From Zychaea mexicana (Eukaryota > Mucoromycota > Mucoromycetes > Mucorales > Lichtheimiaceae): a stretch of 64,000 nucleotides of DNA. The stretch's first letter is position 1. Each line of letters begins with the position of its first letter. A program made the translations under genes and the position numbers. The DNA is taken from the NCBI RefSeq assembly GCF_025766255.1, contig NW_026516674.1, positions 1 through 64,000 of the forward strand, in the 5' to 3' direction. Below, in pieces: positions 2,086 through 24,873 of the stretch. The notes beneath the pieces were generated by a model, which saw nothing but the letters and a program-made list of their open reading frames with translations, was not told the origin of the DNA and searched no databases.

Positions 2086-2530
2086 TTATTGTGCACGCCT
2101 TGCCTTCATTTATTGTCTGTTTGGCCACTACGTAGTATATCTCACCTTCAATAATTGTCCGTTTGGTCTCTACATAGTGTGAGCGTTTTCTATTTTTTAT
2201 TTTTATTTTTTTTAAGCTAGGACTGCTACTGTCGTTATTATCATGGAAATGTCCAAGTGATCATTGTGCACGCCTTGCCTTCATCAATTGTCCGTTTGGT
2301 CTCTACACAGTGTGAGCGTTTTTCATTTTCTTCTCTAGTTTCATGGACCGATGGTAGATGCAACATACATAGGTAAAATCAAATATATAAAACAAGGGAG
2401 AGGAGAAACTTTACAAAAAAAATGGGGGTGGGGAGACTATATACAATAGGGGTGGTGATGTTTTATATATAAAAAAAAAGTAATGAAAAGAGAGCTTTTT
2501 TGTGAGGAGGTATTTGTTATTGAATCTAGG
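2086..2530. repeat. Left inverted-repeat arm, middle segment
   Basis: Resumes homology with the right arm after the 865-2085 insertion and matches the reverse complement of about 17858-18310. It carries two more copies of the arm-internal tandem unit and ends in CTAGG at 2526-2530. The next piece of the arm is displaced to 14647 by the AT-rich insertion. Confidence 0.93.
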
Positions 2531-2689
2531 GCGGCTAATTTGAACCATTATAATTTTTTTTAATCTATAATTTTTATTAATTATATAAATATATTATTAA
2601 TATTATTTAATAAGGAAATAGTCACTATAGCAGTTGACTAAAATGACATTATTTTGATAAAAAAATTATTACCCAGTAATAAATAATTA

Positions 2690-3144
2690 TTAATTAATAT
2701 AAATTATTGACTATTTCATCTCTATAAATAAATGGAGCTTTATCAGTACAATATATTCGGTTATTTTTAAATAAGACATAATATGCATAATCTTTATAGT
2801 CCTTATTTATATATAAAATAGTTTGAATAATTTTGAAAAAACAATTATATCAGGAATTTTAAATATTTGATTTTCATTATTAAATTTTATTAAATTATCA
2901 GTTGATTTTATATAATAAGTTGGTAGAGAAATATTAACATTAATATAATAAAAATCACAATGATTTCTCATACCAATTTCTTCTATATATATAATATCAT
3001 TTAAAATTTTCAATCTTATTATTTTTATTTTCAATATATCTTGCTAATAAATTTCTACTAACATATTTTAAAATTTCATCATAAGTATTAAGTTTATGAA
3101 AATCAAAATCATAATCCATATTAAAAGCAAAGTTATTAGGATCC
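2690..3144 (-). pseudogene. Unknown small gene of the AT-rich block, frameshifted
   Basis: Minus-strand coding-like frames start at a methionine near 3144 (MDPNNFAFNMDYDFDF) and continue to about 2690. They total roughly 150 residues and are broken by two single-base frame changes, near 3034 and near 2820. It lies 35 bp downstream of the orphan chromodomain ORF in the same orientation. I recognise no domain, and no second copy is visible in the window. Calling it a gene rests on the continuity of plausible protein sequence across the breaks. Confidence 0.4.
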
Positions 3145-3177
3145 ATTATTACCTTTTTTGATTTCTTTTTTTTATAT

Positions 3178-3495
3178 TTATAAATTATTCAAATTTTTAT
3201 AATCAGTTATAATAGTTTTTGTATGAAAATTACTTTCTTTAATCCATGTATTATCTTCATCATCATAACCTAACCATTTAACATAAAATACAAACTTTCC
3301 TCTCTCATCTATCATATGATCTATTATTTTTTCTACTTCATATATATTTTCTTCATTTGCTTTTTCTTTGTCTTTATTTTTCTTTCTTTTTTTGGTTATT
3401 GTTTCTTCTCTATTTATAACTTCATCTTCTTCATATGTCATATTTATATCTTCTATATTGGCGTCTGGTTGATAAATATAATACTCAGTACAGAT
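3178..3495 (-). CDS. Orphan chromodomain protein
   Basis: An ATG at 3441 gives 87 residues; the frame is open back to about 3495. A lysine/glutamate-rich linker leads into a chromodomain with its hallmark aromatic and acidic positions: YEVEKIIDHM, FYVKWLGYDDEDNTWI, and a C-terminal helix. Chromodomains bind methylated histone H3 tails, and in transposases they direct integration into heterochromatin. The linker and domain match those at the C-terminus of the nearby DDE transposases, so this is either the surviving 3' end of a transposase copy or a stand-alone chromodomain gene. No DDE sequence remains upstream. Confidence 0.7.
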   Translation of the reverse strand: MCTEYYIYQPDANIEDINMTYEEDEVINREETITKKRKKNKDKEKANEENIYEVEKIIDHMIDERGKFVFYVKWLGYDDEDNTWIKESNFHTKTIITDYKNLNNL

Positions 3496-3559
3496 GATAA
3501 AATTATAATAATTTCATCATCCCAAAATAATTAAAAAAAATATACCTCATATAACCCCT

Positions 3560-4200
3560 CGATTATATATCCGCTATAGGCGGATGAATTATCAAAATCT
3601 TTGATTTTGTACATTGTCTGAAGACCTTTATGTCTGAGTCTTATAGCGGATTTTATCCGCGTCTTAAATATATTATATATGAAAATAATAATAAAATCAA
3701 CGAGGAAGTTCGTAAGAACTCCCACAGTAAGATTTTATATTAATTTTCTATTATTATTTTTTAATTTTAATATAAATTATATTAGCGCGGATAAAAATCC
3801 GCGTCATATTTATTATTTATTATAAAAAGAACAAAAAGGATTGCCTTTCAGGCTAAAGGTTTCCGGTAGGGAACCAATCCTTTTTAGTCTTTTAAAAATA
3901 TATAAAAATTAAAACATTAAAAAATAAATCATATAATAATTATTTTTATGTTTTTATATTAATAAAATTATTACATTATATTTTTATTTAATGGCGGATT
4001 ATAATCTGCCTCTTGTATTTAGACTTAAAAGCTAAAGGTTTCTTCGAACAATGACTTTTCCAAGAAAAGTCTAGAAGCGGATAAAATCCGCTAAATATCG
4101 GAGAGGTAGATGAATGGTTTTTTGTTTTTTTTTAAATATAATAATTATTATAATATAAGGAAGGCATAATATAAAGGATTTGTATTGCCTTCCTGACAAG
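3560..4200. repeat. Cluster of GC-rich palindromes in AT-rich DNA
   Basis: Five short palindromes share a GCGGAT...ATCCGC core: ATCCGCTATAGGCGGAT (3569), GCGGATTTTATCCGC (3646), GCGGATAAAAATCCGC (3787), GGCGGATTATAATCTGCC (3993, one mismatch) and AGCGGATAAAATCCGCT (4076). Two larger hairpins lie among them. At 3833-3885 an outer stem AAAAAGGATTG/CAATCCTTTTT encloses two inner hairpins (a three-way junction). At 4158-4194 AGGAAGGCA pairs with TGCCTTCCT. This stretch contains no credible ORF. Confidence 0.8.
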
Positions 4201-4276
4201 AATAAAAAATAGCATACTCTAAGTATATAAAAAATAATAACATTATTTTTTTGTTTTTTATTGTTTTTTGTTTTAT

Positions 4277-4862
4277 TTAATAATTCAATGTAGTGAGGTT
4301 AGTAATTATCTTTCCTAAATTAATATTTCCTCTGTTACATATATAAATTTTTTTTATTCTACTATTCTTTTTCTTCTTAAATTGTTTTTGTTTCTTTTTT
4401 ATACAATGCAAAATATTACAGCTATTTGAGGGTCCATTATTATTATTTATATATTCTTTATCATTTTTAATATTTAAAAAAATAATTATTTTATTTTTAT
4501 TTTTTGTTTTTTCTTGTTTTTTCTTATTTTTCTTCTCTGGAATATGATTTTTATTATGATTCGTACAAATATATTTTTTATTATCACCATTTTTTAGGAA
4601 TATTTTTACAACAAAACCTTCCATTATTTTTACCTCTTTTATGTTTATATATACATAAATTTTTATCTAAAATTTCAGTTATAAAACTATCTGATTCAAA
4701 TAAATCATATATTTTTTTTTCTATTTTTCTATTTATAAAGGTTATTATATTAATATCTAAATGAAATTCTAATTCTATATTTAAGAATTCTACAATATTA
4801 TTTTTTAAATTAATTTTTAAATCATTTTTATTCAATAATAAGGATGAGTTAAGAATAACCAT
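4277..4862 (-). pseudogene. Small zinc-ligand protein, copy 1 (frameshifted)
   Basis: Homologous along its length to the intact proteins at 7057-7590 and 9521-10039. It starts MVILN, has the HKRGK..G..C motif, then YICTNH as the second metal-ligand pair, and ends with the conserved KIYIC...NLGKI tail. A one-base frame change between the two cysteine pairs (near 4600) breaks it. An AAAATTGA element lies 45 bp upstream (complement of 4907-4914). It sits in tandem downstream of a transposase fragment, as in the other units. Confidence 0.75.
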
Positions 4863-4906
4863 TTTGTAGGAGATAATAAATAATCTATTTTTTATAATAT
4901 AACAAT

Positions 4907-4914
4907 TCAATTTT
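4907..4914 (-). promoter_or_regulatory. AAAATTGA box upstream of small-protein copy 1
   Basis: AAAATTGA on the minus strand 45 bp before the ATG at 4862, followed in gene sense by TTATAAAAAATAG. Part of a signature shared by most gene starts of this element family. Confidence 0.5.
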
Positions 4915-4984
4915 TATTTTATTTTTAAATTGACAAAATTATTTTAAGTTAATACTTTTTTTATAATTTTTAATATAACAACCA

Positions 4985-5190
4985 GTCTCCATTGATATTT
5001 ATAAATTTTTCTTGTATATCTAACATTTCATTATATTCAGTATTAATTAACTGTTTATTCTTAAAAATATAATTTAATTTTGTTTCTTTAGTTGGAAATT
5101 CAAAACCATCATTATATTATAACATATGATGTGGTTGAACTTCTATGGGGTTATACCCAGAATTATAAATATTTGATATTTATATAGGTA
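4985..5190 (-). pseudogene. DDE transposase C-terminal fragment
   Basis: Minus-strand translation gives a piece matching the region after the DDE core in other copies: FEFPTKETKL followed by NTEYNEMLDIQEKF. This corresponds to FEFP...NTEYNEMVDMQQKF in the copy at 21.4 kb. It then ends at a stop without the chromodomain. The fragment precedes the small-protein pseudogene at 4862-4277 in the same orientation, so it preserves the transposase-then-small-protein order. Confidence 0.6.
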
Positions 5191-5290
5191 GTAAGGAATT
5201 TACCGAATATAACGATTCTTCAGATATGTAAATTATTTACATATGATGTAAAAAATAATTGAATTTTTATTTACTATAAAAATATTAACC

Positions 5291-6806
5291 ATAGATATAA
5301 ATAAATCAATATCTGATGAAGTTTATTCTATTATTATAAACCAGTGGTCATTTTTGAACTATAATTGGCCTATTATTAATAATAAGTTCAAACATAGAAC
5401 CATAATAAAGCATATACATTATATTGATATTATTAAAAAAAGTTAGTAGAAAAATTAGGTTATATTGCAGTCTTTTACTTTTTGATTGTATTATATACGA
5501 ATAAAGAGTATCCTGGACCTTATTTTCAAATAGAAAAGGGATTATTTTTATTATACCATTTGGTATCTGGTATTTCTGGGAGTGAAGAAATTGATAAGTT
5601 TATTCTACAAAGTACATTTTTTAATTTTTATAAAAAATTTTGGATAGATGAAGAAAATTATAACAGAATAATCAAAATAGTAAATGAAGGATTGGATAAT
5701 ATGTTTTCAAATATAAGATTAAGAATTTTATCTGCTCATAAATATAATCCAGAATTATTTAAACATGTTACTTTAATTATTGATGGTCATGATTCTAAAA
5801 TAAATTATATTGATACAGAAATAAAATATAGCAGATTATATTCATATAAATTTAAGAAAAATGGTATACGAACTCAATTTATAAGTGATATGAATGATAT
5901 GATTATATATATTTCTAAAAGTGATTATTGTTCAGATAGTTCTGATGGTAGTATGTTCATGAAAATGAAATTGTATAAAAAAATGAATAATAAAGATACT
6001 GTTGCACTTGATGGTGGTTATACTTTATTTGTAAAACAACTAGTTGAATTATCAGAATCAAAAGGTTATGCATTTACTGATGATAACTTTATTTATCCTA
6101 TTAGAAAGGAACCTGGTGAAAGTTTAACTATTACAGAAGATTATTTTAATAAAACATTTGGAAGTTTTAGAAGTAAAGTTGAAAACCAATTTTCTGGGAT
6201 AGGTAATAAATTTTACAGATTTAATAATAATAAGTCAGTTGTAAAGATGGATAATATAAAGTATTATAATCTTCAATTTAAAGTGGCTTGTTTATTAAAG
6301 AATATACAACACTTTAGTGAATTATTTAATATTCCAACTTTACCACATCATAAGGTATGGGAGACTGAGAATTTTGAATTTCCTATTGAAAAGAAATTAA
6401 TAGACATTGTTGTTAGTAATGAAAAGCAAATTAAAACTAAATTAAATAATATGCTTGAATTACAAAATAATTTTTTAAATATGGATATATCTGATACACC
6501 AATGATAGATAATGAATATTCAGTAGATGAAATTAATAGTGACAATAGTAATTCAAGTGATGATTATAAAAAAGTAAAGAATTATCAAGGAAAAGAAAAG
6601 TAAAAGGAAAAGGAAAAGAAAAGGCATATAAATCTTATGAAATTGAAGCTATTGTTGACCATAAATTAGAAAACGAGATATATTACTTTTTAGTTAAATG
6701 GAAAGACTATTCTGAGAATGAAAATACTTGGTTAACAATAAATAACTTTAATGAAAAGTCTATGCTAAAAGATTACATTGAAAGTAATAATCTTAGAACT
6801 TTATAA
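5291..6806 (+). pseudogene. DDE transposase with C-terminal chromodomain, copy A
   Basis: The longest single open frame of the family (373 residues from 5482) lies within a ~500-residue gene. The DDE_Tnp_4-like core has the first acidic residue in IIDGHDS, the second in ALDGGY, and the third in KVENQFSG; the family-typical YPIRK precedes the last. A frame starting near 6590 continues through a lysine-rich linker into a chromodomain (YEIEAIVDHK, FLVKWKDYSENENTW) ending at 6806. Breaks: the expected start is ATA instead of ATG (5291), a one-base loss in an A7 run (5434-5440), and a frame change near 6570-6600. Other copies show the same N-terminal KW.FL.YNWP and EYPGPY motifs. The role by family is cut-and-paste transposition with chromatin-targeted insertion. 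The small-protein gene follows 250 bp downstream. Confidence 0.85.
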
Positions 6807-7056
6807 TTGTACTAAATTTAAGAATGAAAATAAGATTATATTAATAATAGTAAATCAATAAGTAAAATAGAACATAGAGGAATAAACATTAACATGATGT
6901 TAATAAATTTTCTTTAAATTTTTTCTTAACTGACAGTTTTTTTTATTCTCGGAGTTTGAATTCGTGCATACTGTTAAATTTTATTTAAAAAAATACTGAA
7001 TTTTTTTTTAATATAAAAATAAATACCTCCAATATTACTTGGCATAAAAAATTCAA

Positions 7057-7590
7057 ATGGTTATATTAAATACTAAACTTCTTATTAATAAGAATAGTAT
7101 GATTTGTTCTATTAAAGATTTAATGGAGCAGGTTATGCATAATTATTTTGAAGATGAAATGTTAATTAAAGATATTGAAAGTAAGAAGATGATTATGAAT
7201 AAAAAAATTAATGAAGAAATTAATAAAGTTAAAGATAATTATTTTTGGTATGTTAATACAAGCGAAAATATATGCACTTACATACATAAAAGAGGTAAGA
7301 AAAATGGCCATATGTGTCACAGAAAAATTAATACTAATCTTAATGGAGATAAACCTAAACCTGATTACCTTTGTAATATACATAGTAAACTTTATGTTCC
7401 AAAGAAAAAAAATAAAAAATCTACAAAAAAAATAGAAAATCCCAATTTACCATGCATAATTGTTAATGATGGTGATTTTATACATAAAACTAATAACAAA
7501 AGAATAAAAAAAAGAAAATCTAGAAAAATATATATATGCAACAGTAGAAGTTTTAACCTAGCAAATGTACTTAAAGGATTATTACAATAA
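7057..7590 (+). CDS. Small basic zinc-ligand protein, copy 2 (intact)
   Basis: 177 residues with no internal break. The acidic/basic N-terminal half starts MVILNTKLLINKNSM. The central putative metal site is C-x13-C-x18-C-x2-H, with HKRGKKNGHMC between the first cysteines and YLCNIH at the end. A lysine-rich stretch follows, then the conserved tail KIYICNSRSFNLANVL. I know no named domain, but C...RG...G..C...YC..H arrangements are common in short proteins of large DNA viruses. It lies downstream of transposase copy A on the same strand, an arrangement repeated in two other units, which suggests a co-acting partner such as an accessory DNA-binding factor. A TGAATTTTT...TATAAAAATA signature lies about 50 bp upstream. 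Confidence 0.75.
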   Translation: MVILNTKLLINKNSMICSIKDLMEQVMHNYFEDEMLIKDIESKKMIMNKKINEEINKVKDNYFWYVNTSENICTYIHKRGKKNGHMCHRKINTNLNGDKPKPDYLCNIHSKLYVPKKKNKKSTKKIENPNLPCIIVNDGDFIHKTNNKRIKKRKSRKIYICNSRSFNLANVLKGLLQ

Positions 7591-7651
7591 TAGGAACCGA
7601 CGTTATCTACTATACACACTCAAATAATATATCTTACATAAAATAAAATAA

Positions 7652-9245
7652 CTATGCTATTTTATTAGAAAGGGTAGAGTATCGAGTTATCCAAGTTAAT
7701 TTATTAACTTTCATATAGTTATTTAACATATTGGTTTCATTAAAATCTTTCATTGATATCCAGCTATTTTGGGATTCATTATAACCTTTCCATTTAATTA
7801 GGAATATATAGGAGTCATTTTCAAATTTATGATTTATTATGGATTCTAATTTATAAGAAATATTAGAAGTTGAATTATTTCTAATTTTATTTATATCTAT
7901 TAATGTTCCTTTGCCTTTACCTTTTCTTTTTCTTTTTTTCTCATTGAATTTAGGTACATCTTCTTCGCTGGAAACATCTTTATCATTATCATTTTCATCG
8001 CTGTATTCATTATCAATAATCATATCAGTATTATCTATACTTAAATTATTTAAAAACTGTTCCTGTAATTTAACCATTTCATCTAATTTATTTTTTGCCT
8101 CAGATGAATTGCTAATAACTATATCTATTAATTTAGCTTCGTGTGGAAATTCAAAATTATCTGATTCCCATAATTTATGATATGCTTGTGTATTAATATT
8201 AAACTTTTCACTAAATATTTTTATATTTTTTAATAAACAAGCAACACGAAATTGAAGATTATAAAACTTTATGTTATCCATCTTAACAATAGATTTATTA
8301 TTATTAAATCTATAAAATTTATTACCTATTGCAGCAAATTGGTCTTCTATTTTGGAACGGAAGCTACCAAAAACATCATTATAATGCCTTTCTTCTGCTA
8401 TTAAATCTACATTCTTTTCTTTGCGTATAGGATAAACAAAATTATTTAAAGATAAATCATATCCTTTTTCTGTACTAAGTTCTATAAGCTAATTAACAAA
8501 TAAAGTATAACCACCATCTGTTGCCAATACATCTTGTTTAGATATTTTTTTTATATAATTTCATGTTCAAAAACATACTTCTGTCAGAACTATCAGAACA
8601 ATAATCGCTTTTGGAAGCATATAAAATCATATCGTTAATATCGCTAACAATTTGTGTATGAACTCCATTTTTTTTAAATTTATATGACCATAATCTTTCA
8701 TGTTTTATATCAGTATTCACATAGTTAATTCTTGAATCATAACCATCTATTATAAAAGTTATGTGTTTAAAAAGTGGTGGATTATATTTATAAGAAGATA
8801 AAATTCTTAAAGTTAAAGAAGAAAACATATTCTCCATAGAATCATTAACAATTTTATTTAACCTTTTATAGTTATCTTCATTCATCCAAAACTTTTTATA
8901 GTATTTGTGAAATGATGTTTGCGGGATAAACTTATTAATTTCAATACCAGAAACACTAGAAACTAAATGATATAATAAAAATAAACCTTTTTCAACTTCA
9001 AAATAAGGGCCAGGATATTCACAGCTAGTATATAAAACAACCAAAAAGAAAAAAACAGCTATATGACCAAGTTTATCTACTAAAATCTTTTTAATATCAT
9101 CAATACCTTTAATATGTTTTAATTCTGTACGATGCTTGTAATTATAATTAACAATTGGCCAGTTATATTCCAAAAATTCCCACTTATTAACAATAATTTT
9201 ATTAACTTCATTATTAATCTTTTCATCTATTTGTTGGTTATCCAT
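7652..9245 (-). pseudogene. DDE transposase with chromodomain, copy B
   Basis: Begins at an ATG (9245) with two AAAATTGA boxes 30 and 46 bp upstream. The N-terminal two thirds reads MDNQQIDEK, NKWEFLEYNWP, EYPGPYFEVEKG and the first acidic site in FIIDGYDS. It is broken by a one-base change in a run of eight A/T near 8545-8552 and a TAG at 8489-8491, where copy A has CAA/CAG for glutamine. The frame resumes through ATDGGY, YPIRKE, KIEDQFAA, an acidic-then-lysine linker and a chromodomain (YKLESIINHK, FLIKWKGYNESQNSW), ending at 7652. It converges on the small-protein gene at 7057-7590 with a 61-bp gap. Confidence 0.85.
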
Positions 9246-9274
9246 TGTAATATATTTTTATATTTAATTAAAAT

Positions 9275-9298
9275 TCAATTTTTTTTATATTCAATTTT
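9275..9298 (-). promoter_or_regulatory. Paired AAAATTGA boxes upstream of transposase B
   Basis: Two AAAATTGA boxes on the minus strand (complements of 9275-9282 and 9291-9298), followed in gene sense by ATATAAAAATATATT about 20 bp before the ATG. Inferred promoter; no transcription data. Confidence 0.5.
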
Positions 9299-9520
9299 AA
9301 AAATATAATAATTTTGTAAACATGAGGAATTTTTATGAGTCTTAAATATTTTGTTGACCTTAGTTTAGATGAAAAACTTCAACTAATAAACATCCTCCAT
9401 AGTTTAAAATAAGTTTTAAAAGTAATAAACTTTTTTTCAATAATAAAATGCGAAACCAGGGCATGTCAGCATTACCTGTACATATCATAAGCCATTATTC
9501 TTTTTATTAATTAATTTTAC

Positions 9521-10039
9521 TTAGTTTAACATATCACCTATTATTTTACCTAAATTAATTGTACCACCACTACAGATGTAAACTTTTTTTGGTTTTATTT
9601 TTATTTTTCTAATTTTTTTTACGTCTTTTTTTCTTTTATAATCACTTTTTTCTATAATCACATCTTCAATGTTTATTTTTTTATTTCTTTTTCTTTTTTG
9701 GGGAATATGCTTTTTGCTATGAACACAGCATAGATAATCTGGTTTTTCACCATTAAGATTAGTTCTAATTTTCGTTTGATACATATAACCTTCTTTTTTA
9801 CCCCTTTTGTGAACATAAGTACATAGACTATCACTACTATTAATATACCAAAAGTAATTAGATTTAGTGTCATCTACTTTATTTTTGATAATATCACCCA
9901 TTATTTTTTTTTTACTTTCAATTTTTTCAACCAACATTTCTCTATCAAAATATTCTTCCATAACTTGCTGCATAATGTTCTCAATTGAATTAATCATAGA
10001 CACTTTGCATATAAGAATCTCCCTATTGAGAATAACCAT
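9521..10039 (-). CDS. Small basic zinc-ligand protein, copy 3
   Basis: 172 residues, open throughout, homologous to copy 2 from MVILNREILI to the tail KVYICSGGTINLGKI. The second cysteine of the predicted metal site is a tyrosine here (GYMYQTK against GHMCHRK), equivalent to a single G-to-A change, so metal binding may be lost although the frame is intact. An AAAATTGA box (complement of 10106-10113) lies 67 bp upstream, with another at 10209-10216. It lies 260 bp downstream of transposase copy D on the same strand, with a conserved intergenic stretch that also occurs between copy A and its small gene. Confidence 0.7.
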   Translation of the reverse strand: MVILNREILICKVSMINSIENIMQQVMEEYFDREMLVEKIESKKKIMGDIIKNKVDDTKSNYFWYINSSDSLCTYVHKRGKKEGYMYQTKIRTNLNGEKPDYLCCVHSKKHIPQKRKRNKKINIEDVIIEKSDYKRKKDVKKIRKIKIKPKKVYICSGGTINLGKIIGDMLN

Positions 10040-10105
10040 TTTTGTTTTTTTGTAAAATAACTTTATTAAAATTATTTGGTGTTATATTTTTTCTAAATAA
10101 AAAAT

Positions 10106-10113
10106 TCAATTTT
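10106..10113 (-). promoter_or_regulatory. AAAATTGA box upstream of small-protein copy 3
   Basis: AAAATTGA in gene sense 67 bp before the ATG at 10039, followed by GAAAAAATATAACACC. A second copy of the box occurs at 10209-10216. Confidence 0.5.
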
Positions 10114-10298
10114 TTTATTTTTCAAAAATTAAAGTAATGGAGTTTAAAATTAATTTAATTTTAAAATCTATCTTTTATTTAGGTAATAATTTTATATTAT
10201 AAAATTATTCAATTTTTTTATAAATAAAATCTAATAGTATGCATAATTTCAAACTCAGAATGAATTAAAATCTTATTATTTTGATAAAAATTTATAAA

Positions 10299-11390
10299 TT
10301 ATTTTAGTTTTACTACTATAGGTGTACCCGCTATCTGATAATCATTTACCATTTTCCATATATTTTTTAATATACAACATACTCTTAATTGTAAATTATA
10401 ATATTTTATATCAGATATTTGAATTGCTGCTCTATTATTATTAAAACGATCAAATTTAGATGCTAAAACTGAAAAATGATTTTCTATTCCTGATCTAAAT
10501 GACCCAAATTTTTTATTATAATCTAATTCTGTTACACTTCTGTTTATATTTTGCTCTTTTCGTATAGGATACATAAAATTTCTATTATTAAATGTATTAC
10601 TACTATTATAATTATCAGCATGATCAATAAATTTTTCAACAAATAAATCATATCCTCCATCAAAACCAATACAATCTGCTTCTGATATCTTATTTTTATA
10701 GAGCTTCATATTCAAAAACATTGTACCATCATTTCCTATAGCACATTTTTCACTATCTGATACATATATGATCATATTATTCATATCTGACATAATTTAT
10801 GTTCTAATTCCTTTTCCTTTTAATTTATATGAATATAATGTTTTGGATAATTCAGATGGATTATAATATTTAATTTTTGAATCATGTCCATCAAGAAATA
10901 ATGTAACATTTTTAAATCCTTGTGGATTATTAACTTTTGCTGCTAAAATACGAATTTTGATATTTGAAAATAGTTCATCTAAATCTTTTTTTACAACTTT
11001 ATTAATATTATTATAATTAGTAATCCAAAAACGTTTATATATATCATAAAAAGTAGAATATGGTATAAATTCATGCATATCATTTCCAGATTTACCTAAT
11101 ACAATATGGTATAATAAAATTAAACCCTTTTCAATTTCTTTATAAGGACCAGGATATTCTCTATTTCCATATAAAACATTTAAAAAGTAAAATACAGGAA
11201 TGTAACCCAACTGTTTTAAAAGAATATCTTTTATAATATCAATTTTATTATTTTTAGTTTTTTTAATTTCTGTTCTGTGATTAAATTTATTTTGTATATA
11301 TGGCCATTCTGTATTTAAAAACATCCATTTGTTTTCTACCAACTTATAAACTTCTAATTGTAATTGTTCTTGAAAATTAGTAGTATTCAT
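10299..11390 (-). pseudogene. DDE transposase, copy D (chromodomain lost)
   Basis: The ATG at 11390 opens MNTTNFQEQ..., with NKWMFLNTEWP, EYPGPYKEIEKG and the first acidic site LFLDGHDS. A TAA at 10797-10799 replaces the glutamine codon of RTQ in other copies. The frame then continues with GFDGGY, YPIRKEQ and GIENHFSV, and ends prematurely after the LRVCCILKNIW region, so the C-terminal ~190 residues including the chromodomain are absent. The promoter-like box expected just upstream is found 3.1 kb away at 14512, consistent with the Crypton having landed between promoter and start codon. Confidence 0.8.
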
Positions 11391-11479
11391 TGTTTTGTTC
11401 GATCTTTTAACTCTAGTAGAGCAATCCGGGAAATCTAATAACCTTAATGTCAAATTTTGATAATAATAATTATACAACC

Positions 11480-14460
11480 TCAATGTCCCGACATGTCACA
11501 GCAGGTCACCTGCAAAATTTGGGACCCACAAGAAATAACACTTGTTTTCTGCCATCTATATGAGAAATAACTGGTGTTATTGCCATGTGGGTCACAAAAT
11601 AATAATATTACTCTCTGTCCTTTTGTTTCTGACACCGTTGCTATGCTACTACCTGTCATTGTCATGTGTTCCATTTTCAAATTCATCTATATTATACTTG
11701 CGATTTCGCCATTACAACAGTAAATCTAAAACATATGACGGAAAGATATTTTACAATAAGCGACACTTCTTATCTTCTTCAAACAAAATATGTTTCATTT
11801 ATTTCAAGTAAATAGTTTAAGTGGGTCTGCTGAACAAGTAGCAAAGGGAGAAAAGAGCTATGTAAATACCTAAATATTTTGGAAAATCGTTGTCGCCTGT
11901 TTGTTAAGCTCGTTTAAGCTAAGTCCAAGAGCATTGCGCCTTTCTTCGCCCATTGCTGCTGCTGTCGTTTCCAAAATCCCTTTGGCAGAGGCAAATCGCT
12001 CGACCTCCTTAATGATCTTGATTCTGCGACTGAAGAACTTGCGATCGCCGTTTCTCCATTTTGCACCCCAACGTTGTTCCAGTGTTTTCACTGCATAGCC
12101 TCCAGCAAGCCCAACCGACCACTCTGCCCAAAGGTCAGTGACAGTCTTGATTCCCCGGCTCATCATGTAAAACGGTGGCTCACTCGTTGCATCAAGACCC
12201 AATGATTCAGAAGGTGCTGAACTCGGGATGGATGTAACTGTTGCTGTTGTTGGCTGCTGCTCTGGATGGTGCTGCTGTGTTGGCATTGGTGCTGCTGCTG
12301 CTGATGATGATGATGGCCAATTGATGCTTAGGTTTACCGTCGCACGGCCGGATACGAGGTCAGAAAGGTTCTTCGTCATATTTTCCATCTGCATTTGCAT
12401 TGCATCTAACCGCGAAACCATTTCATTGTTCATCGTGCTCATGCGTTGCTCAAGGTGAGGTACGGCACGTTGCAAGAGCAGATCTTGAGGGGTGGCATCT
12501 TCTTGGATGGATCGTTGAAGATCTCTAATAGTCAAAATAGTAACAACAATAAGTACCATATTGATGATCATCTTGTGCATTTTTTTAAAATCAATACTTA
12601 CTCTTTGAACTGGATGTATAGCGGCTCTCTGAATATATGATTGAGAAAAATTGGATGATGCGGATACTTTTCTTGCATAAGCACAGCGTCTTGAAGAAAC
12701 GTAACGCGCAGAACACCTAAGAGACGCAGAAACCCGGCAGCAGCCACTTGATCAGGTCGAATTGTTTCCAGCCAGTATTCGACACGAGGAAAAATCTTTT
12801 TGCATAATTCTTGAGGAGGGTTAACGGCAGCACGAGGCAGAAAGAAGTGACCCTGTTGAGCAGGAAAGCCGGCCAAGACGCGCATGACTTCACGAGGAAG
12901 ACTTGTCAAGTAAGCACCATTCATCGTAGTGTTGTTCCATCTGCCTAATCTTCTTATCTGCGCCTCGTCGGCACCATCCAAATCTGCCATCTTGCATGAG
13001 GATCCACGGGCGGCATGTGTCTTCTTAGAGGAGACAATGTTACATTTGGCAAACGCCTCGTCGATCGCTCGAAGTTGCTGCTGATATGAGATTTCGGTGG
13101 TGTTGGTGGCGGAAGGAGAGGTGCTCTTGAGCAAGCGGATATCATACCAATCTTGGTTATGAGTGAAGATGGGGAATGGTTCGTTTTCGACATGCCAACG
13201 CCAGAAAAAATAAAAGAAAGAGCCATGAAGGGGCATATCTCGACGCGAGTGTTCCGGATGCAGGCGACAAGTTCCAGACGACCGTGCTTGTTTGTCTTTC
13301 CTTGCTTGATAATCATCATGAGGGAATGGCATTCGGACGGGCCTTCATGCTCCAATTCGACACTGTGCATATCGGGTAAGGTAGCCTTCCGTGCCGACTC
13401 GCTTCGCAACAAACAATAGTGAGAAAGCAAAAATGCGAGAGCATTGCGCAAGTGAGACCCTTCGTTCTTGGCCATGTAGTAATCGACAACGTCGGCAATC
13501 TGATCGGTGGTCGTATATCCATCGATCAATGTTCCAAGTGCACATTCGTCGTAATTTTCACGTCGTTGGCTTTCTTCGCGGATTTGGACGAGGTCGATAA
13601 GTTCCTTGACAGCGCTACGTGGATGAGGATGACTATTGGCAAACGAACGAACTTGTTGCTGATATAAATCGACGATGGCGGCAACGTAGCTCATGAAAGT
13701 GGAAGCTTTGATTTTCTTGAGCTGGGTCGATCCTTTGCCCTTGCGACGAGCATCACGGTTCATGACCTGTTAATTGAGATTGTATAAGCTAAGAAGCAGT
13801 ACAGCAAAACTATGATTTTGAAGTCGCACATTTGATAATTATTGTACATACCTCTTCTTTGAGAAACAAATGGAGCTTGTCGCCATAAACAATATAACGA
13901 GTTTCTGCAGGCAAATGTGGCATCATTCTATCGCACCATTGACGGTATTCCGTTTGCTTGTTGACATAGGTTTTCTTCGTGTTGGCTGGGCGTGCTTCGA
14001 GTGCTTCACGGTGCGTTTCATTCATAGATTCACGCATAGCCATTTGCGAGGCCTGATACGTAGAGGAGCTGGCAGTGGTGTTGAGAGACATAATTGACAA
14101 AGATGTATTAGAAAAAAGTGTAGAGCTTGAAAAGTTGGAAATGTATTGCAACTAAATAAAGGCTACATTTTTGAGAATAGTAAATGGTCTTTTATTTATA
14201 TCATTTGTGATAGCAAAGAAAACACTGATGCTCATCTAATTGAGAATGAGTCAATGTACGTGTTATTGCATTGTTACTGCTACGCTCGTTGAGTCTAAGG
14301 ATGTGTGTCATGTCAAAGGCATATGCAAGATGTGTCATAAATGATTCATAGCGGTGACCTAGCGGGTACTCAAATTTTTTCTACAATGCGATTATTGTGT
14401 GTAAGGTCACAATTTGGCTGGTGACTCAGTTTTGTGACCCAAGCCAATCCCCGAAGATAA
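11480..14460 (-). mobile_element. Crypton (tyrosine-recombinase transposon)
   Basis: A GC-richer, intron-bearing segment inside the AT-rich block, carrying one recombinase gene on the minus strand. Both edges carry GTGACC/GGGTCAC-type short motifs, and the left edge has an imperfect inverted pair around 11515-11600 (GACCCACA...TGTGGGTC). Exact ends and target duplication are not clear. The insertion separates transposase copy D from its likely promoter box. Confidence 0.6.
11870..14091 (-). pseudogene. Crypton tyrosine recombinase with GCR1_C domain
   Basis: Three exons: the start at 14091, a GT-AG intron ending just before 13766, a long middle exon, and an intron at about 12530-12599. The middle exon has the recombinase fold: the first arginine in LLRSESARK, a lysine in QGKTNKHGR, HxxR in THAARGSS, and the tyrosine in GRWNNTTMNGAYL. 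The last exon carries a GCR1_C DNA-binding domain (MSRGIKTVTDLWAEW, KWRNGDRKFFSRRIKII). Cryptons excise and insert by site-specific recombination through the active tyrosine. One base is missing from a T-run near 13205, between ALSF and the FFWRWHVENE block. Everything else is clean, so the copy is very young or the gap is a sequencing error. Confidence 0.85.
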
Positions 14461-14511
14461 CTCCTTATTATATATATATTTTGAGCACTACTCAATATAA
14501 TAAATAAAAAT

Positions 14512-14519
14512 TCAATTTT
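14512..14519 (-). promoter_or_regulatory. Displaced AAAATTGA box of transposase D
   Basis: The same box in minus-strand sense followed by ATTTTTATTTATTATATTG, at the distal side of the Crypton. It has no adjacent ORF of its own. Placing it upstream of the D start codon needs only removal of the Crypton. Confidence 0.4.
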
Positions 14520-14646
14520 TAAAAAAAAGTAAAATTAATAAAAAATATTATTTCAGCTAAAAAGGATTACTTCGACTATAAGAAATATATAAAAAATATA
14601 TAATATTATAAAACAAAATAGTTATAAAGGCTTACTAGTTAGACCC

Positions 14647-14718
14647 CTAGGTAATGACAAGAATCGAATGGATCTTGCAAGATTTGAGAACTTTTCAAGG
14701 TAATTAGTTGTATAATTG
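14647..14718. repeat. Left inverted-repeat arm, innermost 72 bp
   Basis: 72 bp that match the reverse complement of 17791-17862 with a single A/G difference. Joined to 2530 they recreate the uninterrupted right-arm sequence across CTAGG, which shows that 2531-14646 was inserted into the arm. Confidence 0.92.
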
Positions 14719-19166: not shown

Positions 19167-20202
19167 ATTTTTACAAACTTTTTTTTTCAACACTATTTTT
19201 TTGTGTATATACAATTATACGTTCATAACATAGACACCAACTTCTGAATCACAAAAACTATCTACAACATCAAGTACAAGCAGCAGCAACAATTCAGGAC
19301 GTCATTTGTTATCAGTAATCGAAGCCGATAACGTTGATTCAGTTTATGAAGGTTTAATCGATAAAAAAATGTGGACGTTATCATGTACTGGTAGAAGAGT
19401 TGAAAAAGTGATGCAACAATGTGCAAATGAGAACAAGTTGGAACAGTACGTACATATTTTATTTTCATTTGTCATTAGCGATTTTCTTTTGTTGTTGATA
19501 TACAACATTTATTTATTTTATAGCATTTTTAGAGGTACACACTCCATGATAATGGACCCTTTGGATCCAATTTGGTCCACTTATTTCACTGAAGAAGAAA
19601 GAGAAGAAATCATTAATCTCAACCCACCAAAATTGCCACCCTTGTCATCCAAGATGGAAAAATATTTGCAACAGTTTGATAATTTGGTAATATAACAAAA
19701 CAAAACAAAACATACACTAAAAAAATGTTAAATGATATGAATAATTTAAATAGACCACATTGGATGACCTTTGGAACAAAGTGAACGAACAAGTATTCAA
19801 CCCAAAACAAGATCCAGAAGTTTATTGGTTGAAAACCTCAATTATAAATGCATTGGAACTATATCATTATAGTTTTTTAAAAAGAGATGTAAAATCCGAG
19901 TCAGACATGCTCCATCGTGTGTGGCAGATAATCTATTTATGCTTCGACAATAATTCAAGAATAACGATTACTAGGTACATATTGAATCTTCTTTTAATTA
20001 TTATACCATCATTGTTAACAAGATAATTATATAATCTGATTTACTTGGTACAGTGGTAAAAAAACCAGCTATGCATCAGCATTACGAAAAAAATCAACCA
20101 TCAATAGAATTCAAAAAAAAACAACTAAACAGATCGAATTGAAGCACCTAGGGCGTCCTACTATTAGTTGTCTAACCAATTATAATCTACTAGCTGTAAT
20201 AT
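19021..20202 (+). pseudogene. 5' part of a split host gene (early-diverging fungal family)
   Basis: Spliced coding sequence with exons ending 19091, then 19234-19445, 19524-19686, 19754-19974 and from 20054, all joined by GT-AG introns in matching phase. The translation includes SVIEADNVDSVYEG, DPLDPIWSTYF, FNPKQDPEVYWLKTSI, SGKKTSYASALRKK and GRPTISCLTNYNLLAV. From memory this matches an uncharacterised family expanded in Mucorales; I know of no assigned function. The frame stops right after LLAV, and the missing continuation appears at 24263. The most 5' exon lies in the right inverted-repeat arm and its start is not resolved. Confidence 0.65.
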
Positions 20203-20347
20203 AGATAATAAAATTGCTATGATCAGTATAACCATCAGTGGCCGAATTAATTATTGATTTACAATAAAAAGAATTTTTTATTTTTATTGGTAGCCTCCTA
20301 CAAGAAAAAAAAGAGCGATTGTTTAAAGCACATAACAACAAATAAAA

Positions 20348-21841
20348 ATGAACACAACACAACACACTAAACAACTCGATATTGAAATTAAAAATTTATT
20401 TGATAATAAATGGACTTTTCTTGATAAATCTTAGCCTGAAATGCAACATAGATTTAATCATAGAGAGAACAGCTATTAAAGATATGAAGAATAATACAAT
20501 AAATGATATAAAGGATGTATTACTTAATAGATTTGGATTTATACCTGTATTTTATTTTCTTACAGTTTTATATGGAAATATTGAATATCCAGGGCCATAC
20601 CGCGAGATTGAAAAAGGACTTGCATTATTATATCATATGGTATCAGGTGTATCAGGAAAGGATATACATACTGTTATGCCGTATGCAACATTTTATGATT
20701 TATATAAGCGGTTCTGGATTACTAACTATAATGAATTGAATAAAAAGGTAAAACAAGATCTAGATAGTATGTTCTCATCACCACGTATTCGCATTCTATC
20801 AGCAATAATAAACAATCCAGATGGTTTTAAGAATGTTACACTATTTATTGATGGACATGATAGTAAAATAAAGTTTTATAAACCAAATGAGTCACATTCA
20901 CAATTATATTCATATAAATTAAAAGGGCCAGCTGTACGTACACAAGTTATATAGGATATGAATGAAATAATTACACATGTTTCAGTATCTGAAAAATGTG
21001 CTATTGGAAATGATGGTACTATGTTTATTAATATGAAACTATATAAAAAAATAAGTGAGGCTGATTGTTTAGGAATGGATGGTGGATATAATTTATTTAT
21101 ACAAAAGTTTAAAGATAATGCGACAGATGCTGGATATAGTTTTTATGATCGTAATTTTTTACATCCCATAAGAAAAGAACCAGGACAAAAGTTAACAATC
21201 AATGAGACATACTTTAATAACAAGTTTGGATCATTTCGTTCAGCAATAGAAGCACAGTTTTCTATGTTAGGCTCTAAATTTGAACGATTTAATAATAATC
21301 GTGCAGCATTGCAAATATCTGATATAAGATATTATAATATTCAGTTTCATGTTGCTTGTATTCTTACTAATATATGGCGATTTGTAAATACTGTAAGTAT
21401 AATATAGAGGTACAACCACGTCATAAATTATGGTATGGAAAAGATTTTGAATTCCCAAGTAAGAAAAACAAACTTGACTTGGTATTTTCAAATGAGCAAA
21501 AAGTAAATACTGAATATAACGAAATGGTTGACATGCAGCAGAAATTTCTACAGCTTAACATTAATCAATCAATAGATATGGCTATAGATAGTGAGGACGA
21601 AACTGAAAATAATACATCTAAACGCAAGAGAAAAAATCAAAGAGAACAGAGAAATATAGAATATAGTAATTCATATGAAATTGAGAAGATTGTAGGACAT
21701 ATGTATACTAATAATAAGTACATATCTGAGGTTAAGTGGGTTGGATATAGTGTAAAGGATAATAGTTGGTTAACAGTTGATAAGTTTAATTCCTGGGAAA
21801 TGCTACATGAATATATGGCCACACATGGTATTCAGCTCTAA
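20348..21841 (+). pseudogene. DDE transposase with chromodomain, copy F
   Basis: Starts MNTTQHTKQLDIEIK at 20348, closest to copy D. The core has FIDGHDSK, GMDGGY, PIRKEPG and AIEAQFSM; the C-terminus has an SKRKRKNQ linker and a chromodomain (YEIEKIVGHM, EVKWVGYSVKDNSW) ending at 21841. Lesions are a TAG at 20432-20434 where copy D has tryptophan, a frame change near 20465, a TAG at 20952-20954, and a frame change near 21395. It is less A+T-biased in codon choice than copies A and B. Its TAA overlaps the Rep gene's TAG on the other strand, implying the two evolved as neighbours. Confidence 0.85.
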
Positions 21842-23951
21842 ATTAATTTCTTACTTATTTGCTTATTAAAAAATCTCATATTGAAACTGACTGTATCAAC
21901 CTTTCGTTTACTTGCCCAATTATATTTATGTTTTATGCATTCATTAGTTATACTTGTACTTATATTAGTATCTGTTGATTTATTTTTGACGTCAGTTTCT
22001 TTTGTTATATCTATATCATCTATTATAGCCTGTTTTATATCCTTATGCTTTTTAAAATATTCTTTTGGCTGTATTTCTTCTACTATTTGCTTGTTTCTCC
22101 GTTTATTTTTATTGTGTCTTTTTTTCTTTTTACGTTTTGGTATATTATTTGGTATGCTGCAGTCACTGCTTTTCTCTGATTCAGATGTACTTACATCTAT
22201 GTATATATGTTTCTCTATATCTTCTGGTGGGTTTTCCTAATCAGTAGTATCATTTACAACATCATCACATTTTATATCATTAAACACATCTTCCCAATGC
22301 CTACAATCTGCTGATGGTGGTACCTTTACAGTTGACCATCCTCTATTATTTTGTTGAGGCGGTTTATGTTGTTTATTGTTCTGTGTATTATTTCTATTGT
22401 GTTTTTCTTCTTGTTCCTTCATATATTCTTCTGTATCAGCTAATTCTTGTAGTTCCTCTACTGTTTTATCCATCAGTATATATTTTCTAATATCATCCTG
22501 ACCACTATTATGTGCATAACGGATAAATGTATGCTGATCTTGGTATTCGTTTTCGAATTCATCTTTGTATAAGTCCTCATACATATCCATGTTTTCATAA
22601 TATATGAATTTATTTTCATAATCCTTCACCTTCATTGTGTATGGATCCCATATTATATGACCTTTACGGCTCTTATCAACATAGATAATATATAAACGAT
22701 TGAGCGCTGGCTCTAACTCATATACTGATTTATTTTTGTATAACATGTGCGCCATATAGTTACTATTCAGTATTATTAGTATATTTTTCTTTTTAGTTAT
22801 TGACTTTGTGAATTTGCCATTAAGTTTTAACCGTGTTCCTTAAAACATTTGGTTTAAAAATGTTAACTTGAAATCAGAACCTGTTTCTTCATTATACATA
22901 AACTCATAATCATCATCCTTATAATCTGGCCAATCATTTTCTTTATTCATTAGATATGCTCGATGGCCACCTTGTTCTAATACATCAATGTTATATGTCT
23001 TACCTACATTTGATGGACCTACAATCCAGTATTGTGGTATCTTATTTTTACCACCAAACATTGTTTCAATACCAAACATAGACCACATATGTAATTTATT
23101 TCCAGGGTTATTTTCCATATCTGCATCATGAAAGTAAGAATTTAAATTTGATTTTACAGTATCATATTTCCATAGCAATTCTGGATATATTTCGGTAGCC
23201 TTCCGCATATTAAGCTGCTTAGTAATTAATTGATATCTAAGTAACTGTTGGTGCATTTTTCTGGTTTTAATTTCATAATTTGGATCCATATTATAACAAA
23301 TATAATCTTTTCCTTTCATACAATAGCTAATAGACTTTTGTGGATTACCACCTGGTTTAATATTTGGAGTAACACCATCAATAGTAAAGAATTTTACGTG
23401 CTGTTTTTGTGTCGAACTGCTCAGCCATTTGTATCTATATGTGTACATGTTTCTCATTGGTTTCTGGTGCAATTTCATCACATGCAATTGCCTTTTCAAT
23501 TCGATAACCAATACGTTCATGTTTTATAAACCATTCCATGATTTGTTCTTTTGTTAAATAGAAGTCCTTACAAATATATGTGAACAGCCCTTTAGTGTTT
23601 TGGAATCGGAATTCTTTGCCGCCCTGCGAGGAATCTGCACCAGAGGTGTTACCCTCTAACATTGCATCGGAAAATTGAGGATTTGAGGATTTGATGAATC
23701 TCACATATGCTCGAATTCTTCTAATGATTTTATTGCGTGCATTATCTTTAGTTTTTTTTATCTACTTTAGCCTGTGTAAGGTCTTTTTCGAGTTCTGACC
23801 TCAGTTGTGTGATAAGAGGTTCATACTCAATATGCTGATGGTTTTCAGCAAGGTGTTTTGCTCTTTCAATTGAGAGCGTCAATGTAATTCCTAAAATAGG
23901 AACAAATTCAGCTATAATGGCTAAGAATGCGAGAAGGTTGAGTTGGTTCAT
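21838..23951 (-). pseudogene. CRESS-type Rep: HUH endonuclease plus SF3 helicase (broken)
   Basis: Minus-strand reading from ATG 23951 to TAG 21838-21840, about 700 codons. A hydrophobic N-terminal stretch (LLAFLAIIAEFVPILGITL) and an acidic/basic helix come first. Then rolling-circle motif I (LFTYI), motif II HVHI (the HUH pair) and motif III with the catalytic tyrosine (YCMKGK). The SF3 helicase has Walker A GPSNVGKT, an acidic Walker B (YEFMYNEE) and motif C ILIILNSN. The tail is long, acidic, then lysine-rich (KRKKKKRHNKNKRR). Breaks: frame change in an A8 run (23752-23759), TAG at 23435-23437 just after HVHI, frame change near 23390, TAA at 22840-22842 and TAG at 22237-22239. It resembles Reps of circular ssDNA viruses and plasmids; no capsid gene is seen. 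By family it nicks an origin and unwinds DNA for rolling-circle replication. Confidence 0.85.
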
Positions 23952-24041
23952 GTCTATTGTTGAAGTAATAAAAATAAAAAATATAACAAATATATTTTGC
24001 TTTATATTCTGTGGTATTATTTTTATATTTAAAAAAAAAAT

Positions 24042-24049
24042 TCAATTTT
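24042..24049 (-). promoter_or_regulatory. AAAATTGA box upstream of Rep gene
   Basis: AAAATTGA in gene sense about 90 bp before the Rep-frame ATG at 23951, followed by a T-run and AAATATAAAAATAATACC. This downstream stretch is almost identical to the sequence before the small-protein gene at 7057. Confidence 0.5.
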
Positions 24050-24262
24050 TATTTTTTCTAAAAATTTAAATGTATGCATGCCAAGACATTCGTGCATGAA
24101 TTATTTCAATAAAAATTAATTTGGCTATCCTGATATATCTTAGCTAATAAGTCATCTAGTATTACTAGATCGCATTAAAATCATCATAACCATGGCCGGT
24201 CCCCTAGGCGATTTCTTGGGACACGAACTGATCTTTTATTCTATACACCGCAAACAATGAAT

Positions 24263-24873
24263 GAATATGAGACTACCGAAATTGGCTTGGATTTAAGAAT
24301 AGACAGTAACAAGGCGATTAATGAACTCGAGTTGAAGTGCCCTAAAACTATGAAGGACATGTTATTACGAGTGATGCGAATATATCCCGGCATTCAACAT
24401 GATCTTATGATATGCGGATTCAACATATCTGGTATGCTGTTTTTAATGGTCATGATGTATTGGTTTTTAAAACATTGTCTAAAAATATGTTTTCCTTATA
24501 TTCAGGCCTCTATATGAATCAACTGGTGGTAGACAATCCAAAAGGATACGTATATCGTTTATCGAGATTCCCAGAAGAACTGCAGTATCTGGAAAAACCT
24601 TGCAATTTTATCAAGTTAATCAAACCGATATTTGAAACGATTCATGGAACCAAGATGCAAATGGAAAACACTCTTAAAAGCATCGATACTAAAAAAGCAA
24701 ATGATGGAGTTCTCAAGTATGGATTTAAGAAACCTGCAAAAATTCTTTCCATTCCCCCCTGTTTTACTCCAATACCTACTCCAAAAAAAAGAAAACCCAC
24801 CGCATCCAACTCTTCATCCTCTTCCAAAAAAAAAGCCACTGCATCCAACTCATCATCCTCTTCCCAAAAGTAA
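24263..24873 (+). pseudogene. 3' part of the split host gene
   Basis: Reads EYETTEIGLDLRID then LKCPKTMKDML, an intron (about 24432-24506, GTATGC...TTCAG), LYMNQLVVDNPKGYVYRL, and a serine/lysine-rich tail ending at 24873. It follows on from the LLAV end at 20202 in the order expected of the family. The splice is intact, so decay since disruption is limited. It could still be expressed as a truncated protein from the ATG at 24257. Confidence 0.6.

What the first reader, a model, noticed from the sequence alone, without database searches (positions are those of the whole stretch)
20348..23951. DDE-chromodomain transposase and HUH/SF3 Rep as convergent partners with overlapping stop codons
Seen directly: a plus-strand gene with DDE core motifs and chromodomain ends in TAA at 21839-21841. 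A minus-strand gene with HUH motifs I-III and SF3 Walker A/B/C ends in TAG at 21838-21840. The two share bases of their stops and together fill a ~4-kb insertion inside a host gene. Such tight packing suggests they moved as a unit. A cut-and-paste transposase paired with a rolling-circle replicase would be an unusual element design: replication by Rep, integration by DDE, targeting by chromodomain.
Basis: partly seen in the sequence, partly recalled or inferred. Interest (0 to 1): 0.82.

Follow-up and report, generated by a model that had tools for sequence, protein, structure and literature searches.

The report
Fungal DNA transposon carrying viral-type Rep
In a mould genome, a cut-and-paste jumping gene carries, in place of its usual helper gene, a replication gene of the kind used by small circular DNA viruses, and the two genes have been inserted together at several sites in the genome.

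Summary
A chromodomain DDE_Tnp_4 transposase (+) and a CRESS-type HUH/SF3 Rep (-) converge with overlapping stops (TAA 21839-21841; TAG 21838-21840). Both lie in one 4,053-bp element (window 20152-24204) flanked by the 3-bp duplication TAG. An empty copy of this very site, with one TAG, exists elsewhere in the genome (L045); a second family member also has an empty site (L027/L028). So the pair inserts as one unit. At least 40 places carry the contiguous junction. The window copy is broken, but other copies keep long open frames. Between Rep subfamilies selection looks purifying (dN/dS about 0.1 in the most diverged pairs, from few lineages); Rep is mosaic while the transposase is uniform. Sister families in the same genome have a small Cys/His ORF in the same convergent slot, or no second gene, so Rep seems to fill the accessory-gene slot of a PIF/Harbinger-like element. 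Precedent: a Rep-plus-transposase element in truffle (Liu et al. 2011). What Rep does here is inferred, not shown.

The parts
20152..24204 (.). Whole Tnp+Rep element, 4053 bp; left end GGCGTCCT..., right end ...CGGTCCCC
   Evidence: Ends shared by the family; empty site L045
20149..20151 (.). Target-site duplication TAG, left copy
24205..24207 (.). Target-site duplication TAG, right copy
20348..21841 (+). DDE_Tnp_4 + chromodomain transposase (broken in this copy: open pieces 20352-20954, 20955-21407, 21371-21841)
   Evidence: 43 nucleotide matches from 40 scored candidates
21838..23951 (-). Rep: N-terminal extension, HUH endonuclease, SF3 helicase, charged C-terminal tail (broken in this copy: four open pieces)
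21838..21841 (.). Overlapping convergent stop codons (TAA + / TAG -, sharing 21839-21840)
   Evidence: a 200-bp query across it gave 40 scored matches, all crossing it: 36 full length, 1 to base 199, 3 to base 191
24154..24170 (.). Sub-terminal palindrome near the right end, ATCTAGTATTACTAGAT here, ATCTAGGGTTACTAGAT in most copies read; weak candidate origin, not significant in a shuffle test

Best explanation
A two-gene cut-and-paste DNA transposon of PIF/Harbinger type. SHOWN: transposase and Rep lie inside one pair of ends, insert together with a 3-bp target duplication, have at least 40 contiguous junctions in this genome, and Rep differences between subfamilies are mostly synonymous (purifying selection). 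INFERRED: the DDE transposase excises and integrates the element, with its chromodomain helping it onto chromatin. Rep sits in the slot of the accessory gene that Harbinger-type elements need; sister families have a small Cys/His ORF there. Rep most likely binds, nicks and unwinds the element's own DNA, giving the element a replicative step while it is excised (rolling-circle-like), so that cut-and-paste yields net copies.
For: One pair of ends and 3-bp TSDs; two empty sites; at least 40 contiguous junctions; transposase sequence beside Rep at 31 of 40 Rep places. Convergent layout with another second gene in sister families. Rep dN/dS 0.09-0.13 in the 12 most diverged pairs printed. In A1, motif III YxxK is kept in 10 of 10 rows covering it, HxH in 9 of 10, Walker A GPxxVGKT in 11 of 11 (read by eye). 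CRESS-Rep fold. Rep P0006 and Tnp P0038 from elsewhere both list a longest contig of 4459 bp. A transposase-deleted derivative that keeps Rep has its own TSD TGA (L026).
Against: No circle, transcript or activity was seen. No significant CRESS origin was found: hairpins with a loop within 2 mismatches of NANTATTAC also occur in 200 of 200 shuffles. P0006, the homologue that appears to share a contig with a transposase, reads HYY instead of HxH, and one window-family copy (P0002) reads HVY. Among close Rep copies (55 of 153 pairs, dS up to 0.12) median dN/dS is 0.55, like the transposase's 0.53; the low values come from comparisons with few diverged lineages (L031, L035 in the pairs printed). 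7 of 15 copies lack a TSD. Terminal inverted repeats are very short (about GGNGNCC). Rep-deleted derivatives also exist, one with a TSD AAA (L025), so Rep is not needed in cis.
Confidence: 0.55

Rival explanations
1. Rep was captured only as a sequence-specific DNA-binding and nuclear-import helper for the transposase, doing the job of the Myb-like protein of Harbinger elements; its nuclease and helicase activities are not used.
For: Rep sits in the accessory-gene slot. Harbinger's Myb-like protein interacts with the transposase, allows nuclear import and binds the ends (PMC9179366, passages). HxH is lost in P0006 and in one copy here.
Against: YxxK (10 of 10) and Walker A (11 of 11) are kept, the invariant columns of A1 lie in the helicase region or just after it (partial rows cover only that region, which favours this), and the diverged subfamilies show low dN/dS over the whole coding stretch compared.
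Confidence: 0.25
2. The element is an integrated CRESS-DNA virus or plasmid that captured a transposase as its integrase.
For: Rep is clearly CRESS-type.
Against: No capsid ORF recognised: two genes fill most of the 4.05 kb. Sister transposons with the same transposase type lack Rep. No relatives in four scans of viral contigs. More transposase than Rep homologues were found in single-sequence searches (93 against 11).
Confidence: 0.08
3. Chance neighbours: a transposon and an endogenous Rep with separate insertion boundaries.
For: Eight Rep places remain unresolved.
Against: Shared ends, TSDs and two empty sites; at least 40 contiguous junctions.
Confidence: 0.01

Closest known systems
Geminivirus-like transposon of Tuber melanosporum (Liu et al. 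2011, PMC3198968)
   Same: Fungal repeat with a geminivirus-like Rep ORF plus transposase ORF(s), tens of copies
   Different: Tuber: two transposase ORFs, 37-bp TIRs, no obvious TSD, transposase type not given in the section read. Here: one DDE_Tnp_4/chromo transposase, very short TIRs, 3-bp TSDs, empty sites, Rep in the accessory slot
PIF/Harbinger transposons
   Same: DDE_Tnp_4 transposase, 3-bp TSD, two-gene layout
   Different: Second gene is Rep, not Myb-like; transposase ends in a chromodomain; TIRs far shorter than the usual 25-50 bp
CRESS-DNA virus Reps (geminivirus, redondovirus, circovirus)
   Same: HUH endonuclease plus SF3 helicase, single catalytic tyrosine (YxxK)
   Different: About 110-aa N-terminal extension and long charged C-terminal tail; no capsid gene; partner is a transposase
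Helitrons
   Same: Eukaryotic elements with an HUH enzyme
   Different: Here SF3 helicase, DDE transposase and TSDs; Helitrons have a different helicase and make no TSD (recalled)

Membership tests
PIF/Harbinger | DDE transposase of the DDE_Tnp_4 family | tested here: met
   1.8e-9 for P0003; the DGHD, DGG and E300 positions are invariant or nearly so in 30 rows (their assignment as the catalytic DDE is recalled)
PIF/Harbinger | 3-bp target-site duplication | tested here: met
   8 of 15 Tnp+Rep copies with both ends (1 in 64 expected by chance per copy); empty sites
PIF/Harbinger | Terminal inverted repeats of 25-50 bp (PMC9179366, 'usually') | tested here: not met
   Only about 7 imperfect bases
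PIF/Harbinger | Second ORF coding a Myb/SANT-like protein | tested here: not met
   The second ORF is Rep. Hence 'Harbinger-like', not a classical Harbinger
CRESS-DNA Rep | HUH endonuclease fold with YxxK | tested here: met
CRESS-DNA Rep | SF3 helicase | tested here: met
CRESS-DNA virus | Capsid gene | tested here: not met
   No further ORF of 100 aa or more in the element apart from one lying opposite Rep
CRESS-DNA virus | Stem-loop origin with nonanucleotide | tested here: inconclusive
   Candidate hairpin, no better than shuffles at the criterion used
CRESS-DNA virus | Circular free genome | not testable with these tools
   No reads held
Tuber geminivirus-like transposon | Sequence relatedness of the transposase | not tested
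   The Tuber element was not fetched
Helitron | No TSD, Rep/Hel fusion, no DDE enzyme (recalled) | tested here: not met
   TSD and separate DDE gene

The most novel reading that the evidence does not exclude
A hybrid transposon that integrates by a DDE transposase but amplifies by Rep-driven rolling-circle replication, sometimes reading through its left end into the host flank. At two loci (C46, C271) the element's right end is joined exactly to the start of a 1559- or 1547-bp stretch of its own left flank, and the array ends in an intact empty site, as expected if circles of element plus flank recombined into an empty allele.
Probability: 0.25. Interest if true: 0.85.

Novelty: new variant of a known kind. 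Interest (0 to 1): 0.62.

Why it matters
Cut-and-paste transposons gain copies only indirectly. A DDE element that carries and keeps its own replicase would be a direct route to copy gain and a link between transposons and CRESS-DNA viruses. The sister families in the same genome, with another second gene or none, make the role of the accessory slot testable by comparison.

Tried and rejected
Viral contigs: no relatives of Rep or transposase in four scans (P0006, P0038, A1, P0003). Plasmid and phage records: one weak phytoplasma Rep match at E 0.3, none in phages. Origin search: the criterion used was met in 200 of 200 shuffles, so the palindrome near the right end is only a candidate; it is altered in the three right ends that come with a missing or truncated Rep (L022, L025, L026), but those ends are 70-82% identical overall, so that proves little. 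A similarity that I saw by eye between the element's right end and the host sequence before the duplicated flank in L027 ranked 534 of 2853 positions (20-base test) and was dropped. The idea that all copies without TSD are flank duplications fails: the right flank of L019 is single-copy and that of L020 is a repeat containing a sister transposase. L041 (C68), looked at as a possible independent pairing with another transposase, is a remnant cut by another insertion and is inconclusive. Eight Rep places (C291, C19, C224:363873, C303:12831, C174:4395, C273, C68:529572, C212) were not resolved. Papers: ten searches gave one precedent, PMC3198968; a fungal transposon paper (PMC5751038) was not held.

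Full report
Observation. The transposase stop TAA is at 21839-21841 and the Rep stop TAG on the minus strand at 21838-21840, as stated. The window copy is broken: transposase in three open pieces, Rep in four. Other copies keep long frames: a 494-aa transposase at four of the loci scanned (L021, L022, L026, L031) and Rep pieces up to 587 aa. Pfam gives DDE_Tnp_4 and Chromo for the transposase.

Family in the genome. The window lies in a 50.3-Mb assembly of 305 contigs. Nearest transposase names are from Circinella minor (78%), so the host is probably a Mucorales fungus (inference). DNA searches gave 40 scored Rep places of 121 candidates and 43 transposase matches from 40 scored of 343 candidates; both are lower bounds. 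A 200-base query across the convergent stops gave 40 scored matches out of 69 candidates, all crossing the stops; 36 cover all 200 bases, 1 reaches base 199, and 3, from Rep-deleted derivatives, stop at 191. Of the 40 Rep places, 31 have transposase sequence at the Rep 3' side, in some only a remnant (my own cross-check by coordinates), 1 is a transposase-deleted derivative (C115:38605), 8 are unresolved.

Boundaries. Left ends begin GG(C/T)(G/T)TCCT and right ends finish GTC(C/T)(C/T)C. In 24 loci scanned, 15 elements with both genes have both ends; 8 have a perfect 3-bp duplication (L017 and L018 at the same site TAG, L021 AAG, L023 GAG, L028 TTA, L029 AAT, L030 CAT, L036 TGT) and 7 do not (L019, L020, L024, L027, L031, L032, L035). 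These are not all independent: L027/L028 and L031/L032 share left flanks. L045 is a natural empty copy of the window's own site: window 19787-20152 and 24203-24443 align to it end to end with one TAG (97.5% and 98.8% identity). L027 holds an empty copy of the L028 site with one TTA. This is the decisive evidence that transposase plus Rep insert as one unit.

Relatives. Two other element types occur in the window and elsewhere. One has transposase and, convergent to it, a small Cys/His-rich ORF in place of Rep (L043; window 5147-10330, interrupted by another such element at 6878-9397). The other has transposase and no second ORF that I could see (L042). By eye, 3-bp duplications can be read at three of these (window TAT, L043 AAT, L042 ATA); at the inner 6878-9397 element the duplication is ambiguous. 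Neither small ORF tested matches a Pfam family above its cut-off. In a tree of 37 transposases the window's P0003 and P0038 fall, with the Rep-less P0018, in one 17-row clade (100/100), and P0046, the relative of the type with the Cys/His ORF, in a sister clade of 9 (93/93); the branching inside the 17-row clade is open, so one or several gains of Rep cannot be told apart.

Selection and mosaicism. Nei-Gojobori comparison of natural copies: for Rep, 98 of 153 pairs have dS above 0.12 with median dN/dS 0.21 (range 0.09-0.43); the 12 most diverged pairs printed (dS 0.72-0.94) have 0.09-0.13 and all involve L031 or L035. The other 55 pairs, of close copies, have median 0.55. For the transposase all 231 pairs have dS at most 0.12, with median 0.53. 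So purifying selection on Rep is seen between subfamilies, while close copies of both genes look like young decaying copies. Along the element, the transposase is 93-100% identical per 150-bp bin in the 12 copies profiled, whereas Rep changes by block: L031 and L032 drop to about 72-90% from about window 22050-22100 on, L019, L028 and L029 to 75-86% only around the Rep N-terminus, and L030 and L035 have drops of their own. I read this as exchange of Rep alleles between elements.

Odd arrays. L027 reads A-X-E-X-B: 1559 bp of left flank (X) follows the element's right end directly, and X-B is an intact empty site. C271 repeats the pattern with X of 1547 bp in an array; there the sequence to the left of the first X was not available. 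The break lies exactly at the right end in both. A circle of element plus flank recombining into an empty allele explains both; one-ended transposition into a sister chromatid, or tandem duplication followed by precise excision, also could. C112 (L025) looks like an ordinary tandem duplication, its break 982 bp from the end (computed). L019 and L020, also without TSD, do not show the pattern. I give the rolling-circle reading 0.25.

Literature. [quoted passage not shown] PMC9179366 (passages) describes the two-ORF Harbinger plan with Myb-like partner and 3-bp TSD. PMC6668415 (passages) gives the Rep motif definitions; among the 12 of 20 places shown there was no DDE-plus-Rep eukaryotic transposon. 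PMC7928374 (passages) lists PIF/Harbinger elements in Mucorales without mentioning Rep in those passages. Ten searches of the held library found no other report of this combination (calls listed under Tried and rejected); papers outside that library were not searched.

Verdict. Real, well bounded, and a new variant of a known kind. What Rep does for the element is the open and interesting part.

Noticed in passing
window 2530-14651: Nest of sister transposons: a transposase-only element (pieces 2530-3461, 4991-5146, 10331-11474, 14471-14651) split by an element with transposase plus convergent Cys/His ORF, itself split by a second such element at 6878-9397, and by further insertions with other ORFs (about 3.5-5.0 kb and 11.5-14.5 kb, types not tested).
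   Followed up: partly
window 7048-7590 (+), 9521-10081 (-); L043:4057-4617 (-): Small Cys/His-rich proteins (about 172-177 aa from the first Met, motif C-T-Y-x-H-K-R-G-K-K) in the accessory slot of sister transposons; no Pfam family above cut-off in the two scanned.
   Followed up: partly
L027:1355-8525; L024 and L044 (C271): Left flank of about 1.55 kb repeated directly after the element's right end, ending in an empty site; break exactly at the right end at both loci.
   Followed up: partly
C51:10313-10342, C115:38319-38348, L013: Head-to-tail composites: right end, a similar 15-base linker (TGAATATTTAAAATT type), then a left end of another family member.
   Followed up: partly
L025, L026 (C112, C115); L040 (C140), L029:8221-9889: Complementary deletion derivatives: some keep the transposase and lack most of Rep, others keep Rep and lack most or all of the transposase.
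   Followed up: partly
L041:1289-1951: ORF resembling a Tc1/mariner transposase (recalled motif) inserted in a Rep remnant.
   Followed up: no
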